The position numbers and the translations under genes are program-made. This document shows, piece by piece, positions 33,833-37,872 of a stretch of 64,000 nt of DNA. Below the pieces are notes generated by a model. It was not told the origin of the DNA. It did no database searches and saw only the letters and a program-made list of their open reading frames with translations. The stretch is taken from contig NZ_OK052578.1 of the NCBI RefSeq assembly GCF_019933155.2, positions 1 to 64,000 on the forward strand. Reading direction: 5' to 3'. Source of the DNA: Metabacillus dongyingensis (GTDB lineage: Bacteria > Bacillota > Bacilli > Bacillales > Bacillaceae). The stretch's first letter is position 1. Each line of letters opens with the position of its first letter.

Positions 33833-33861
33833 TTGACTTTTTTTAAGAGGAAATTTATAAT
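33833..33861 (+). promoter_or_regulatory. σA promoter of the macrolide-resistance locus
   Basis: TTGACT, 17 bases, TATAAT. Transcription should start near 33868, about 35 bases ahead of the leader peptide. Confidence 0.85.
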
Positions 33862-33901
33862 AATCATTGTACTTTTAAACTTTAAGGAGGATTATTAAAA
33901 A

Positions 33902-33946
33902 ATGACACACTCTATGAGACTTCGTTTCCCATCTTTGAACCAGTAA
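33902..33946 (+). CDS. ErmDL-like macrolide-sensing leader peptide
   Basis: 14-residue frame MTHSMRLRFPSLNQ after a strong ribosome site (TTTAAGGAGGATTATTAAAAA). It is one residue different from the ErmD leader as I recall it (MTHSMRLRFPTLNQ) and contains the MRL motif on which macrolide-bound ribosomes stall. Terminator hairpins, further short frames, a macrolide exporter and an ABC-F gene follow, so it very likely controls them by attenuation. Confidence 0.9.
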   Translation: MTHSMRLRFPSLNQ

Positions 33947-34046
33947 TTTAATACATTCAAAGACTCTGTTTGTATATACAGAGTAAACGGGATCAGTCTG
34001 TCCTTTTTTAATAATCTTCATATCAAATACAATCATGTATTGTGAA

Positions 34047-34080
34047 GAAAGGCGGTTCGTTCTGCCTTTCTTTATTTTTT
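34047..34080 (+). terminator. Attenuator terminator 1 in the resistance leader
   Basis: GAAAGGC / GCCTTTC with TTTATTTTTT. It lies about 100 bases after the leader peptide; an upstream hairpin (ACTCTGT / ACAGAGT, 33963-33984) could take part in the switching. Confidence 0.75.
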
Positions 34081-34120
34081 GTGATTTCCTTTCTTTTTTA
34101 GCAAACGGGAGGTTTATTTG

Positions 34121-34141
34121 ATGACGGCTACCTTTGCTTAA
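34121..34141 (+). CDS. Second very short leader frame (MTATFA)
   Basis: Six codons after a good GGGAGG site and between two terminators. Such placement suggests a translated leader frame, but its length leaves the assignment uncertain. Confidence 0.45.
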   Translation: MTATFA

Positions 34142-34178
34142 TCCTTATCAAAAGGATGGGCCATTTTCCCTTTACTCC

Positions 34179-34219
34179 AAATCACAGGCAGATTGCCTGT
34201 GATTTTTTATTTTTTTAAA
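34179..34219 (+). terminator. Attenuator terminator 2 ahead of the mef-like gene
   Basis: AATCACAGGCA / TGCCTGTGATT perfect stem, loop GAT, followed by a long T-rich run. Confidence 0.9.
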
Positions 34220-34244
34220 AAAATAATTGGAGGGATATTATATA

Positions 34245-34265
34245 ATGATGCTATTTTTCTATTAA
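34245..34265 (+). CDS. Hydrophobic leader peptide MMLFFY
   Basis: Six-codon frame after GGAGGG. It resembles in size and hydrophobicity the leader of msr(D) (MYLIFM, from memory) and the frame MQFLLFY before the ABC-F gene here. A hairpin follows at 34287. Confidence 0.6.
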   Translation: MMLFFY

Positions 34266-34286
34266 TACTTTCTTTAGTTTTCAGCT

Positions 34287-34309
34287 CGTATCGGTGAAGA
34301 ATCGATACG
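34287..34309 (+). promoter_or_regulatory. Leader hairpin before the mef-like gene
   Basis: CGTATCG / CGATACG. The downstream GATAC could instead pair with GTATC at the ribosome site (AGGAGGTATC), giving a possible translational switch. The same CTCGTATCG...ATCGATACG element stands before the ABC-F gene. Confidence 0.6.
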
Positions 34310-34334
34310 TAAATTTTAGGAGGTATCAATTAAT

Positions 34335-35524
34335 ATGGAAAATAAAAACTGGAAACGAAAATTATTTGCAATTTATACAGGGCAGTTCTTTTCATTACTG
34401 AGTAGTTCTGCAGTTCAATTTAGTATTATTTGGTGGTTAACCGATACAACAGGTTCTCCTCTTGTATTAACACTGGCAGGGTTAGCTGGATTTTTGCCGC
34501 AAGCATTGGTTGGACCATTTGCTGGAACATTGACGGATCGTTACTCGCGAAAAATGTTGATGATTCTGGCTGATATGACTGTGGCACTTGGAAGTTTACT
34601 TTTATTTGCATCGATGTATTTTAGCGAACCAAGTATTGCATTAACCGTACTCGTTTTAATCATTCGTTCACTGGCAGCTGCCTTTCATATGCCGGCAATG
34701 CAAGCTTCAGTCCCACTGCTTGCACCTGAAGAGCATCTTACAAATGTTGCTGGCTGGGGACAGACGGTGAGTTCTGTGTCAAATATTGCAGGACCAGCAT
34801 TAGGTATGTCATTACTTGCAGTTCACTCGCTTGAATGGGTGTTATTGCTAGATGTTTTAGGTGCTTCTATTGCTTGTACTTCTTTGCTGTTTATTCGTAT
34901 TCCAAGAATGTCAATAACAAAAGACAGGGTTTCTAGTAGCTTTATTACTGAAATGAAAGAAGGGTATTTTGCGATTGTGGAGCATCCTCTTCTACTAAAG
35001 TTAACAATTGTAATGACAGTGGCAGCTGTCCTATATATTCCTCTCGGCACTTACTTTCCACTTATTACACGTAATCATTTTGAAAAAGGTGTAGTAGAAG
35101 CAGGGATAGTCGAGATTGCATTTGCGATTGGCTTAATAGTGGGGGGACGATAATAGGTGTCCTAGGAGAACGTTTTGATAAAATCAAAACAATGGCAACT
35201 GGGATGATGTTAATGGGCGTTGCATTATTCATTTCTGGTTTGCTCTCACCGTCACTTTTCTATGTATTTATTGTGCTGAGTGGTTTAGTTGGTTTATCTG
35301 GTCCATTATTTTCAGCTCCGTTCTATGCCTGTATTCAATCAGAAATAGAGCCGCATTTACTTGGGCGGGTATTCAGTTTTGCAACAAGTCTATCTCTGCT
35401 GGCGACACCAATTGGGTATGTGCTAGCTGGAGTATTTATGGAATTAACAAGTGTAGCCATACTATTTTCATTAACAGGTGTCTTAATTATTCTTAATGCA
35501 GTGGTAGCAATTAAGGCGAAGTAG
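34335..35524 (+). pseudogene. Mef-like macrolide efflux MFS protein, frameshifted
   Basis: The two frames 34335-35153 and 35154-35524 together match one Mef-type transporter of about 396 residues. N-terminal half: NWKRKLFAIYTGQFFSLLSS, GFLPQALVGPFAGTLTDRYS, AAFHMPAMQASVPLLAPEE. C-terminal half: GERFDKIKTMATGMMLMGVA, LGRVFSFATSLSLLATPIGY. The break is at a run of six G (35141-35146); a seventh G would restore VGGTIIGVLGERF. Mef proteins expel 14/15-membered macrolides by H+ antiport and work with Msr-type ABC-F proteins, which follow here. As read, the protein is truncated at 272 residues and unlikely to work; a one-base sequencing error is equally possible. Ribosome site TAGGAGG. Confidence 0.85.
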
Positions 35525-35537
35525 GAGGATGAAAACA

Positions 35538-35561
35538 TTGCAATTCTTATTATTTTATTGA
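35538..35561 (+). CDS. Hydrophobic leader peptide MQFLLFY before the ABC-F gene
   Basis: Seven-codon TTG-start frame, 9 bases after AGGAGG. It is followed at once by two mutually exclusive hairpins and the ABC-F gene, as expected of an attenuator peptide. It parallels the frame at 34245. Confidence 0.55.
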   Translation: MQFLLFY

Positions 35562-35607
35562 TACGAGCTTGAAATAGAAGCTCGTATCGATCATAGCTAT
35601 CGATACG
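35561..35607 (+). promoter_or_regulatory. Two mutually exclusive hairpins in the ABC-F leader
   Basis: Hairpin A: ATACGAGCTT / AAGCTCGTAT (35561-35587). Hairpin B: CGTATCGAT / ATCGATACG (35583-35607). They share CGTAT, so only one can form at a time, a hallmark of a ribosome-controlled switch. Confidence 0.7.
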
Positions 35608-35636
35608 AAATCATAAAATTTCGGGAGGTAGCAAAA

Positions 35637-37090
35637 ATGGAACAAATATGTTTTGAATTAGAAAATGTCGAAGTGACATATTTAGATAAAGAGATATTAA
35701 AGATTGAACGGTTAGCTGTACATCAATTTGACCGAATCGGTATCGTCGGTAAAAATGGTGCAGGGAAAAGTACACTATTAAAGTTAATTGCAGGTAAAAT
35801 TCAACCATCAAGCGGAAAGGTAAACCGTCACGTAGAATGTGGTTATTTTGAGCAACTTGAAGCTCCTGCTGCTGAAGCAGCTGATTTAGCTTTACTTGGA
35901 AAATTGTCAGTTCCAAAAAATTCAGAACAGCTTAGTGGTGGGGAGCAAACAAGGCTGAAGCTTGCGCAAATGTTTACTCATTATTACGAAATGTTACTAA
36001 TTGATGAACCGACAACACATTTGGATCAAAATGGCATATCCTTTTTAGTAGATGAATTACGATATTACTATGGAGCGCTTATGTTAATTAGTCATGACCG
36101 TGCGGTACTAGACGAGCTCGTCACAACTATTTGGGAAATACATGATGAAAAGGTTGTCATATATTCAGGAAATTACAGCGATTACATGGCACAGAAGCAG
36201 TTAGAACGTGAACAACAGAGTCAAGCTCATGAACAATTCATTAAAGAAAAGAGTCGACTAGAAAAAGCAGCGCAGGAAAAAATGAAAAAGGCTGAAAAAA
36301 TTGCTCAAGCTGGAAGCATGTCAAAAAAAGAAGCGAATGCAAAACCTAACAAAACGTTTATGACGAAATCAAAAGGGACGAGCCAAAAAGCCATGCAACG
36401 TGCTGCGAAAGCAATTGAGCATAGAATGGAAAAACTTCAAGAAGTTGAAGCTGTACAAGAGGAAAGGCAAATCGTGTTCCGCCAGTCAAAAAAATTGGAA
36501 TTGCATAATAAGTTCCCAATTATGGCAGACCGATTAATTCTCCAAATTAAGGATAAAGTGTTACTGGATGAAGTGAGTTTCCAGATGCCACTCGGTAAAA
36601 AAATAGCCATTACTGGTGCAAATGGCAGTGGTAAAAGGACATTGCTTCAACATATTGTTAATGATGGTGCGGGTTTAACCATTTCGCCCAAAGCAAAAGT
36701 TGGCTATTTCAGTCAAATGAGCTATCAGTTTACAAGTGATGAAACAGTATTACAATTTTTGAAAAGTCGCTCCGATTATGATGAAGGATTTTTACGAAGT
36801 GTTTTACATTCGATGCAGTTTGTCGGCACAGATATACTGAAAAGTGTGAAGTCATTAAGTGGTGAGAAGCGATTCGCCTCCAACTTTGTCAGCTGTTCTT
36901 AGGAGAATACAACATTTTAGTATTAGACGAACCAACCAATTTTTTAGATATCCATGCCATCGAAGCATTAGAACGATTTATAGCTGCATATGAAGGGACA
37001 ATCGTATTTGTATCCCATGATCAAGCGTTTATTAAAAATGTAGCAGACTTAAAGTATAATATTTTTGAGAAGAAATTGAATCAAGAGTAA
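35637..37090 (+). pseudogene. Msr/Vga-like ABC-F ribosomal protection protein, frameshifted
   Basis: Soluble twin ABC protein; ABC-F members bind the ribosomal E site and dislodge antibiotics. First ATPase: Walker A GIVGKNGAGKST near 40-51, signature LSGGEQTRLK near 100, Walker B LLIDEPTTHLDQ near 121. A lysine-rich linker at about 180-280 follows. The second Walker A reads ANGSGKRT, with Arg in place of the conserved Ser. The frame breaks near 36862: GGTGAGAAG would need one more G to give LSGGE, after which LGEYNILVLDEPTNFLDIHA and VFVSHDQAF continue to the stop at 37088. Without it the protein ends at residue 421, before the second Walker B. Ribosome site CGGGAGGTAG. Confidence 0.88.
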
Positions 37091-37350: not shown

Positions 37351-37400
37351 AGTATAAAATGAAGTTATCAAAAAATTTTTACAAAAAGAAGGGGTATAAA

Positions 37401-37620
37401 TTGCCGAGTATTCAGGATACCACCTACCCTAGAATCAAGAGCAACCTGACAGTTAAAGAATTAGATGAAGTTTATATACCACAACGAACAGAAATAGCTT
37501 GGACAGAGGCGAAATCTAAAGGAACCTTACAACAATTAGCTTTATTAGTTTTAATCAAATCCGTACAAAAGCTAGGATATTTTAAAAGAGTTGATGAGAT
37601 TCCAGAGGTGAAATCGTGGC
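37401..37620 (+). pseudogene. N-terminal fragment of a Tn3-family transposase (TnpA)
   Basis: Starting from TTG at 37401 with AGAAGGGG upstream, the frame reads PSIQDTTYPRIKSNLTVKEL then DEVYIPQRTEIAWTEAKSKG and LLVLIKSVQKLGYFKRVDEI, the DUF4158-type N-terminus of Tn3 transposases. After about 37620 the frame stays open to 37814 but leaves the family, where unrelated minus-strand sequence begins. The remaining about 900 residues of the transposase are absent. Confidence 0.8.
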
Positions 37621-37743
37621 ATACATTTCATCACGAAGTTTGGTGTAAATTTCCCATGAGTCCTCGTCCCACCATCTTGAATCCCATCGGTTCATCATCC
37701 ATCGAATTTTTTCAACTTCTAACATTCGAATTACTCCTTTTCA

Positions 37744-37872
37744 TTATATTGAGGATATACTTTTTTCTTTTGCTACAGGCACATCGAATGGAAGTTTCGG
37801 GGGTTTACGATTGAGATCAATACGATATTTCCCAAATCGGTTAACATGTGCCGTCACATAAGGGCTCAAATA
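37744..37872 (-). pseudogene. C-terminal fragment of a Tn3-family transposase
   Basis: On the minus strand the frame YLSPYVTAHVNRFGKYRIDL, then NRKPPKLPFDVPVAKEK, ends at 37744. This matches the conserved end of Tn3 TnpA (LSPY-T-HINRFG-Y-LDL). It is in opposite orientation to the N-terminal fragments on both sides. Downstream on the same strand, at about 37714, is the beginning of another small frame (AAAAGGAGT then MLEVEKIRWMMNRWDSRWWD). Confidence 0.75.

What the first reader, a model, noticed from the sequence alone, without database searches (positions are those of the whole stretch)
33833..35640. Chain of leader peptides and attenuators in a mef/ABC-F macrolide locus
The first leader (MTHSMRLRFPSLNQ) is nearly the ErmD leader, yet it stands before an exporter, not a methylase. 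It is followed by two terminators, a second short frame, a hydrophobic peptide (MMLFFY) before the exporter and another (MQFLLFY) before the ABC-F gene. The two hydrophobic frames each stand before a CTCGTATCG...ATCGATACG element, so a peptide-plus-hairpin cassette seems duplicated. Each gene may have its own ribosome-sensing switch.
Basis: partly seen in the sequence, partly recalled or inferred. Interest (0 to 1): 0.85.

Follow-up and report, generated by a model that had tools for sequence, protein, structure and literature searches.

The report
Stacked drug-sensing leader-peptide switches
Upstream of two damaged macrolide-resistance genes lies a chain of tiny peptides and RNA hairpins that in intact relatives looks like two or three successive ribosome-sensing locks, the last kind of which seems to open a gene's ribosome-binding site when the drug stalls a ribosome.

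Summary
In detail: an ErmD-type leader (MTHSMRLRFPSLNQ), two terminators, and hydrophobic leaders before the mef exporter (MMLFFY) and the msr ABC-F gene (MQFLLFY, TTG start), each followed by a CTCGTATCG...ATCGATACG element. It is a mef(F)/msr(G)-like branch of the known mef/msr operons, where such a first leader is expected. What goes beyond the streptococcal model is the msr cassette: in 31 of 46 loci read, a leader ending LLF[FY]-stop is followed by four segments that pair as 1:2 and 3:4 or as 2:3, segment 4 holding the Shine-Dalgarno. That is the layout of an ermC-like translational attenuator; streptococcal msrDL uses a terminator. Segment 1 lies within a stalled ribosome's reach in 30 of 31 rows. 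Before mef, the four segments are complete in 4 of 13 mef-msr loci found, partly lost in 2 (this window, L180), absent in 7; there the opening of the site is not shown by folding. In this window the usual 1:2 pairing before mef is lost and both gene frames are broken, so it looks like a decaying copy. The frame MTATFA is not conserved. The mechanism is inferred from comparison and folding; nothing was measured.

The parts
33833..33861 (+). promoter-like -35/-10 (TTGACT-17-TATAAT)
   Evidence: a TTGACTTTTT...TATAAT-like stretch stands at the same place in L115, L126 and L128 (read by eye)
33884..33890 (+). Shine-Dalgarno of leader 1
33902..33946 (+). leader 1, ErmD/MefAL-type MTHSMRLRFPSLNQ with the R-x-R arrest motif
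   Evidence: motif from PMC10314930
33999..34019 (+). conserved element complementary to the leader 1 Shine-Dalgarno and start
   Evidence: RNAalifold on 33 rows; MFE
34042..34075 (+). terminator-like hairpin T1
   Evidence: seen in L114, L115, L126, L128
34121..34141 (+). short frame MTATFA, probably not a gene
   Evidence: as a frame kept in 1 of 4 aligned relatives
34179..34205 (+). terminator-like hairpin T2
   Evidence: seen in L115, L126, L128, absent in L114
34245..34265 (+). leader 2 MMLFFY (MMMLLFY in L114, L115, L126)
34266..34284 (+). stretch where relatives have segment 1; here 1:2 is -0.3 kcal/mol, and it is predicted to pair with the mef Shine-Dalgarno instead (not more than its base make-up gives)
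34285..34309 (+). 2:3 hairpin of the mef cassette (the terminator scan also lists it)
34318..34327 (+). mef Shine-Dalgarno with the weakened segment 4 of the mef cassette
   Evidence: 3:4 -4.0 here against -8.9 to -10.6 kcal/mol in L114, L115, L126
34335..35153 (+). mef-type MFS exporter, N-terminal piece (frame broken)
   Evidence: NCBIfam MefB 9.5e-70, MefA 7.4e-66, scores below the curated cut-offs
35192..35524 (+). mef-type MFS exporter, C-terminal piece in another frame
   Evidence: NCBIfam MefA 7e-20, below cut-off
35538..35561 (+). leader 3 MQFLLFY, TTG start, LLFY-stop core
35562..35570 (+). segment 1 (UACGAGCUU)
35578..35591 (+). segment 2 (AAGCUCGUAUCGAU)
35596..35611 (+). segment 3 (GCUAUCGAUACGAAAU)
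35618..35632 (+). segment 4 with the msr Shine-Dalgarno (AUUUCGGGAGGUAGC)
35637..36902 (+). msr(G)-class ABC-F gene, frame broken near its 3' end; a Walker A residue that is invariant in 30 aligned relatives is substituted
   Evidence: NCBIfam ABCF_Msr_all 1.5e-196 (653.8 bits, cut-off 680), ribo_prot_ABC_F above its cut-off

Best explanation
The locus is a damaged copy of a mef(F)/msr(G)-like macrolide-resistance operon controlled by stacked leader-peptide switches. Lock 1 (whole operon): without drug, RNA polymerase stops at T1/T2; a macrolide-bound ribosome arrested at the R-x-R motif of the ErmD-type leader changes the fold so that transcription passes. [quoted passage not shown] That ribosome covers segment 1, so segment 2 pairs with segment 3 before segment 4 is made and the Shine-Dalgarno in segment 4 stays open. 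Without arrest 1:2 and 3:4 form and the gene is poorly translated. Shown by computation: the segments, their mutually exclusive pairings, conservation and geometry. Inferred: arrest, its drug specificity, capture during transcription, effect on translation. For mef the same layout exists in 4 relatives, but opening of the site is not shown. In this window the mef cassette has lost 1:2; what it does now is open.
For: 31 of 46 msr-type loci read carry the cassette. Both Leu positions of LLF are Leu in 31 of 31 rows while using 5 codons each; the picking pattern had required F[FY]-stop but not LL. Segment 1 ends 15 nt from the first base of the last sense codon in 30 of 31 rows, within the reach measured on msrDL (toeprints +31 to +33, sixth codon at +16; PMC10314930 section 8). 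On 39 rows (38 distinct): 1:2 paired in 96.8% of cells, 4 pairs changed on both sides, 0 of 500 shuffles reach the covariation score; 2:3 98.4%, 2 such pairs, 1 of 500 for the score; outer 3:4 helix 100%. Forcing 2:3 instead of 1:2 raises msr Shine-Dalgarno openness from a mean 0.39 to 0.81, by more than 0.3 in 31 of 39 rows. By eye no U-run follows the hairpins of the msr cassette. Of 40 genomes with a model hit (20 of 397 of the order, 23 of 398 of the class, 3 shared), 38 have it directly before an msr-type gene.
Against: No translation, arrest or expression data. Without forcing, masking the ribosome's footprint opens the msr site only from a mean 0.39 to 0.52, so capture during transcription is needed. 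In 8 of 39 rows forcing 2:3 opens it by 0.3 or less; in L118 it closes. In 3:4 part of the Shine-Dalgarno lies in an internal loop. 2:3 had no two-sided change in the first 31 rows; the outer 3:4 helix has one, with 51 of 500 shuffles as good, and one slid control still pairs 83%; a slid 1:2 has 5 pairs with two-sided changes, though only 29.7% of cells pair. The count of both 3:4 helices (463 of 468 cells) used anchors that fix most of those letters. Intact mef cassettes: openness of AGGAGG unmasked/masked is 0.75/0.71, 0.78/0.77, 0.51/0.75, 0.57/0.53, so no clear opening in 3 of 4. The terminator scan lists the mef 2:3 hairpin.
Confidence: 0.66

Rival explanations
1. The hydrophobic cassette is a transcription attenuator like streptococcal msrDL, one of its hairpins acting as a terminator.
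For: The published MsrDL switch works through an intrinsic terminator (PMC10314930, section 7); the leaders share the L-[LI]-F core. The scan lists the window's mef 2:3 hairpin (34287-34309) as terminator-like.
Against: At the msr cassette the only terminator-like site is on the minus strand, and by eye no U-run follows its hairpins. The phi1207.3 msrD leader, which has a GC stem with a T-run, lacks the CTCGTATCG element.
Confidence: 0.14
2. The hairpins mainly set mRNA stability or processing in a drug-dependent way, and the Shine-Dalgarno pairing is secondary.
For: The abstract of PMC4335068 reports leader-dependent mRNA stability for mef(E).
Against: Would not need three mutually exclusive helices with segments shared, nor segment 1 at a fixed 15 nt from the last codon in 30 of 31 rows.
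Confidence: 0.1
3. The short frames are not translated; the conserved RNA is a protein- or small-molecule-binding element.
For: Strong RNA conservation; no Rfam family matches the window.
Against: Leu at both positions in 31 of 31 rows with five codons each, including TTA/CTA exchanges; start codons differ (ATG 22, TTG 6, GTG 3) while the frame is kept.
Confidence: 0.05
4. The window's mef cassette is not just decayed but rewired: the stretch after the MMLFFY stop pairs with the mef Shine-Dalgarno itself and an arrested ribosome would free it.
For: Shine-Dalgarno openness 0.005 unmasked and 0.72 with the ribosome's footprint masked (same picture).
Against: Of 1000 permutations of the same 19 letters 145 close it as tightly, and their mean openness is 0.09, so base make-up alone explains it; one genome only.
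Confidence: 0.2
5. The frame breaks in mef and msr are assembly errors and the genes are intact in the strain.
For: One break lies by a homopolymer (sequence); a 97% identical protein of 484 residues is known from Metabacillus dongyingensis.
Against: Several separate defects: two frame breaks, a substituted Walker A residue, and the lost 1:2 pairing of the mef cassette.
Confidence: 0.3

Closest known systems
mef(A)/msr(D) operon with MefAL (MTASMRLR) and MsrDL (MYLIFM), Streptococcus
   Same: Order of genes; an RLR leader with terminator before mef and a short hydrophobic leader before msr; LLF[FY] lines up with L-I-F-M of MsrDL, whose L3 and I4 sense drug and F5 clashes with release factors (PMC10314930, passages and sections 7, 8)
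   Different: Here the msr leader is followed by a four-segment Shine-Dalgarno layout, not a terminator; some relatives add a like cassette before mef
erm(D)/erm(K) leader, Bacillus
   Same: Leader 1 differs by one residue from MTHSMRLRFPTLNQ (ErmDL as printed in PMC10314930); 81.6% identity over about 330 nt, reaching T2, with DNA before a predicted ErmD gene on a B. licheniformis plasmid
   Different: Controls mef/msr here, a methylase there
erm(C) translational attenuator (recalled, not fetched)
   Same: 1:2 plus 3:4 closed, 2:3 open, drug-arrested leader over segment 1
   Different: Arrest is expected at the stop codon of a 6-9 residue hydrophobic leader rather than inside a longer leader
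mef(F)-msr(G), Macrococcoides canis plasmid pMiCAN82a (L139)
   Same: Same gene classes; RLR leader and the msr cassette with MQFLLFF
   Different: No cassette before mef

Membership tests
mef/msr macrolide operon | mef-type MFS gene followed by msr-type ABC-F gene | tested here: met
   mef pieces match MefA/MefB and the ABC-F piece ABCF_Msr_all, all below the curated cut-offs as pieces; ribo_prot_ABC_F is above its cut-off; plasmid relatives annotated mef(F)/msr(G)
ErmD/MefAL-type leader attenuator | short leader with R-x-R arrest motif and Shine-Dalgarno | tested here: met
ErmD/MefAL-type leader attenuator | intrinsic terminator between leader and gene | tested here: met
   by sequence:
ErmD/MefAL-type leader attenuator | macrolide-dependent ribosome arrest and read-through | not testable with these tools
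   needs toeprinting and RNA assays
MsrDL attenuator (streptococcal type) | short hydrophobic leader with L-[IL]-F-x before the stop | tested here: met
   msr leaders:
MsrDL attenuator (streptococcal type) | intrinsic terminator between leader and msr | tested here: not met
   no plus-strand site at the msr cassette; compare L143
ermC-like translational attenuator (as a layout) | four segments with exclusive 1:2/3:4 and 2:3, segment 4 holding the Shine-Dalgarno | tested here: met
   msr cassettes:
ermC-like translational attenuator (as a layout) | same layout before mef in this window | tested here: not met
   1:2 -0.3 kcal/mol
ermC-like translational attenuator (as a layout) | 2:3 opens the Shine-Dalgarno before mef in relatives | tested here: inconclusive
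   four segments present in L114, L115, L126, L195; openness rises clearly in L126 only
ermC-like translational attenuator (as a layout) | drug-dependent translation of the gene | not testable with these tools
   needs a reporter

The most novel reading that the evidence does not exclude
The Bacillales msr(G)-class operons are layered AND-type circuits: a transcription lock read by one arrest peptide (R-x-R type, or a second unrelated type MAFLQ[LV]Y in 5 loci) and then a translation lock on msr, sometimes also on mef, read by another (stop-codon arrest at LLF[FY]), so that two different peptide sensors must agree before the resistance protein is made. The LLF cassette would be a portable module that stands before msr behind different partner genes (mef, a Mph-like kinase, an RlmA/TlrB-like methyltransferase) and was copied in front of mef.
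Probability: 0.32. Interest if true: 0.75.

Novelty: new variant of a known kind. Interest (0 to 1): 0.6.

Why it matters
Streptococcal mef/msr has two leaders that both act on transcription. If the Bacillales branch, including plasmid-borne msr(G), puts a translation lock behind a transcription lock and reads each with a different arrest peptide, one operon gives a test of why such sensors are stacked (leak control, or drug-class discrimination), and it offers natural MsrDL-like variants (LLFF, LLFY, LLFS, LLFL) for structural work on stop-codon arrest. The conserved cassette is also a searchable marker of likely inducible msr genes that protein annotation alone does not show.

Tried and rejected
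Considered and dropped: MTATFA as a leader (kept in 1 of 4 aligned relatives). The idea that an ErmD leader before an exporter is unusual (papers). The cassette as a general element: of 16 viral-contig pattern matches none scores above 18.2 bits with the model; one weak genome hit without msr (G451). Rfam: nothing at gathering score in the window. Plain equilibrium folding does not show the msr switch clearly. My first view that the window's mef copy is simply open was dropped, and confidence was lowered (0.72 to 0.66; novel case 0.35 to 0.32) because intact mef cassettes do not clearly open in 3 of 4. A pattern search for the MAFLQ leader found 1 genome of 348 and missed G345, a known carrier in that sample, so it says nothing on other contexts. 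Paper searches (listings only, apart from the two papers read in part) showed no description of the LLF cassette in their listings; leader words hit PMC4335068, PMC10314930, PMC8298421 and PMC8005064 only. The article that described mef(F)/msr(G) is recalled, did not appear, and was not seen; nor was the supplement of PMC10314930 that aligns msrDL variants. So 'not in print' is not claimed.

Selection and rows: upstream DNA was read in 46 loci: the window, 20 of the 80 named loci, and 25 stretches; 23 more named loci (L029-L045, L047-L051, L053) and L028 were only scanned with the model; L054-L089 were not examined. Of the 31 cassettes of A3, 24 were picked with a pattern requiring F[FY]-stop and a hairpin, 7 were added by eye; no locus had the hairpin pattern without the leader pattern. 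A5 left out 7 of the 31 (L015 out of register; L019, L026, L046, L116, L129, L137 near-duplicates or long loops) and added 15; L179, L181, L183-L190, L139, L140, L171, L172 were left out as near-duplicates or not needed. A4 holds 33 of 39 RLR loci (left out L017, L023, L024, L117, L124, L170), and one search had required R-x-R, a Shine-Dalgarno and a downstream motif. Among the 7 mef loci without cassette L139, L140 and L182 look near-identical upstream. The order and class samples overlap.
Full report
What is there. The window is the first 64 kb of a 362,158-base contig (C2) of a two-contig, 5.4 Mb genome. By its closest ABC-F relative (97%, Metabacillus dongyingensis) the host is a Metabacillus-like Bacillaceae; this is inference. 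Between 33833 and 36902 lie, in order, a promoter-like site, an ErmD-type leader, two terminator-like hairpins, a short frame MTATFA, the hydrophobic leader MMLFFY, a hairpin, a mef-type exporter in two pieces, the hydrophobic leader MQFLLFY, overlapping hairpins, and an msr-type ABC-F gene. Both genes are broken: the mef frame ends at 35153 with a C-terminal part in another frame, and the msr frame ends at 36902; one Walker A residue that is invariant in 30 aligned relatives is substituted. Relatives with full-length frames exist (of the loci measured, L114 has a short mef frame of 162 residues). Whether the breaks are real or sequencing errors cannot be settled here.

Lock 1. One search gave 42 matches in 39 loci (three loci with two starts) that carry an RLR leader with like RNA around it; the script required R-x-R, a Shine-Dalgarno and a downstream CTCTG/GTCTG motif, so part of the likeness is by choice. 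In 33 of the 39 aligned, the leader's Shine-Dalgarno and start pair with a conserved element about 110 nt downstream (window 33999-34019); RNAalifold gives 35 pairs, 7 with two-sided changes, with a small covariation term of -0.87 kcal/mol. The same module, 81.6% identical over about 330 nt and reaching T2, stands before a predicted ErmD gene on a Bacillus licheniformis plasmid. Transcription attenuation by such a leader is published for mef(E) (PMC4335068: abstract, section list, passages, sections 19 and 23 seen), which cites it for erm(K). So leader 1 is a known type in a known place.

Lock 2 before msr. Of 46 msr-type loci whose upstream DNA was read (window, 20 of 80 named loci, 25 unnamed stretches), 31 carry the same cassette. 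The 15 without it are at most 65.4% identical to the window's ABC-F over its first 322 residues; two carriers, L017 (63.0%) and L118 (65.9%), are that distant too. Leaders are MQFLLFF (7), MQFLLFY (6), MMTLLFY (4), MIMQFLLFF, MMMLLFY and MKMMLLFY (2 each) and eight others once. Both Leu positions are Leu in 31 of 31 rows with five codons each. Members found by the model read MWLLFL (L193) and MMTLLFS (L028), and L180 reads MQFLFFF by eye, so the core is not strict. After the stop come segments 1 (UACGAGCUU), 2 (AAGCUCGUAUCGAU), 3 (GCUAUCGAUACGAAAU) and 4 (AUUUCG(G)GAGGUAGC, with the Shine-Dalgarno). Folded apart, in the window 1:2 is -17.5, 2:3 -12.2 and 3:4 -13.0 kcal/mol; over the 31 rows the ranges are -12.7 to -20.7, -11.4 to -18.0 and -11.3 to -19.1. 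Pair counts on 39 rows, 38 distinct: 1:2 96.8%, four pairs with two-sided changes, 0 of 500 shuffles reaching the covariation score; 2:3 98.4%, two such pairs, 1 of 500 for the score and 26 of 500 for the number of pairs; outer 3:4 helix 100%, one such pair, 51 of 500. Slid controls pair 13-44% of cells for 1:2 and 2:3, though one slid 1:2 has five pairs with two-sided changes; for 3:4 one slide still pairs 83%. In the first 31 rows 2:3 had no two-sided change. So 1:2 has covariation; 2:3 and 3:4 rest mainly on conservation, as would be expected if each base serves two helices. A count over both 3:4 helices (463 of 468 cells) used anchors that fix most letters and is no independent test.

How it would work. 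Segment 1 ends 15 nt from the first base of the last sense codon in 30 of 31 rows (17 in one; L015 by eye), within the reach of a ribosome arrested with the stop codon in its A site, as measured for MsrDL (PMC10314930: outline with abstract, passages, sections 7 and 8 seen). L3, I4 and F5 of MYLIFM correspond to L, L and F. With 1:2 forced, mean msr Shine-Dalgarno openness is 0.39; with 2:3 forced 0.81; the rise exceeds 0.3 in 31 of 39 rows, and in L118 it falls. Without forcing, masking the ribosome's footprint changes it only from 0.39 to 0.52, upward in 31 of 31 rows, so the switch must be set while the RNA is made: 2:3 can form before segment 4 exists. By eye no U-run follows the hairpins of the msr cassette, and the scan lists none there on the plus strand. 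The streptococcal leader, read in phage phi1207.3, has a stem with T-run and no CTCGTATCG element.

Cassette before mef. Thirteen loci with mef directly before msr were found (window, L114, L115, L126, L128, L139, L140, L141, L168, L169, L180, L182, L191/L195). Four have all segments (L114, L115, L126, L195: 1:2 -10.9 to -21.1, 2:3 -11.0 to -13.3, 3:4 -8.9 to -10.6 kcal/mol; leaders MMMLLFY or MMTLLFY); segment 4 there is GGUAUCGAU(U), another sequence that again pairs segment 3. But 3:4 takes in only the end of AGGAGG, and its openness unmasked and masked is 0.75/0.71, 0.78/0.77, 0.51/0.75 and 0.57/0.53: a translational switch for mef is a likeness of layout, not shown by folding. Two loci keep only part: L180 lacks leader and segment 1 but has full-length mef and msr frames, and the window has lost 1:2 (-0.3) and weakened 3:4 (-4.0). 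In the window the stretch after the MMLFFY stop is instead predicted to pair with the mef Shine-Dalgarno (openness 0.005, or 0.72 with the footprint masked), which could be a simpler switch, but 145 of 1000 permutations of its letters close the site as tightly and their mean openness is 0.09. Seven loci have no trace (only 151 nt upstream seen in L140; L139, L140 and L182 look near-identical there). The model built from msr cassettes alone finds the mef copies of L126, L114 and L115 at 53-58 bits and the window's at 33.9, so the two cassettes are most likely copies. L129 and L131 show a further partial copy in tandem before msr without mef.

Elsewhere. With the model, 20 of 397 genomes of the order and 23 of 398 of the class (3 hits shared, samples overlapping) have a hit at E 0.001; of these 40 genomes 38 have it directly before an msr-type gene, G609 before a truncated start of one by eye, G451 (31 bits) before none. 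These searches used filters that lose weak matches. The 16 viral-contig pattern matches look like chance. None of 23 named loci with relatives of 33-46% identity has a hit at E 0.1, L028 (51%) has. So the cassette belongs to the msr(G)-like branch.

Chain. In 30 cassette loci other than the window, 17 have an RLR leader upstream, 5 a different leader MAFLQ[LV]Y (L010, L011, L127, L129, L138), 8 neither by this script (a 23-residue RLR frame at -2133 in L016 was set aside). In the 5, the region folds as 1:2 plus a terminator, and with the leader end masked segment 2 pairs the terminator's 5' half. Between lock 1 and the msr cassette stands mef, or a Mph-like kinase (L017, 3919-4830), or an RlmA/TlrB-like methyltransferase (L118, 2372-3289) (these two names are recalled from the look of the sequences, not from a family search), or no gene.

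Verdict. The sequence observation is confirmed. As an operon it is a damaged member of a known kind. The conserved LLF cassette as a translational lock on msr behind a transcriptional lock is a variant of the published mef/msr control, supported by comparison and folding, not by experiment. Papers searched are those; the article that named mef(F)/msr(G) was not seen, so prior description cannot be excluded.

Noticed in passing
L010 4717-4740; also L011, L127, L129, L138 upstream of the msr cassette: A different conserved leader MAFLQ[LV]Y-stop followed by a terminator whose 5' half can pair with an upstream segment; a candidate further arrest peptide.
   Followed up: partly
L118 2372-3289 and L017 3919-4830: The gene between the RLR leader and the msr cassette looks like an RlmA/TlrB-like methyltransferase or a Mph-like kinase instead of mef, so the operon partner varies.
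   Followed up: partly
L180 150-330 (G471): A mef cassette without leader and segment 1 but with the 2:3 hairpin; both genes have full-length frames.
   Followed up: partly
L129 2326-2402 and L131 about 2040-2085: An extra, partial hydrophobic-leader cassette in tandem before the msr cassette, without mef.
   Followed up: partly
window 37359-37814: Short frame with a weak DUF4158 match (25.9 bits, cut-off 27.4), perhaps a cut transposase N-terminus next to the resistance genes.
   Followed up: no
window 33999-34019: Conserved element complementary to the leader 1 Shine-Dalgarno and start in the 33 aligned rows; its part in the erm(D)-type switch is not worked out.
   Followed up: partly
L194 (G609): By eye, a remnant of segments 3 and 4 and the first codons of an msr gene, with no gene found behind it.
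   Followed up: no
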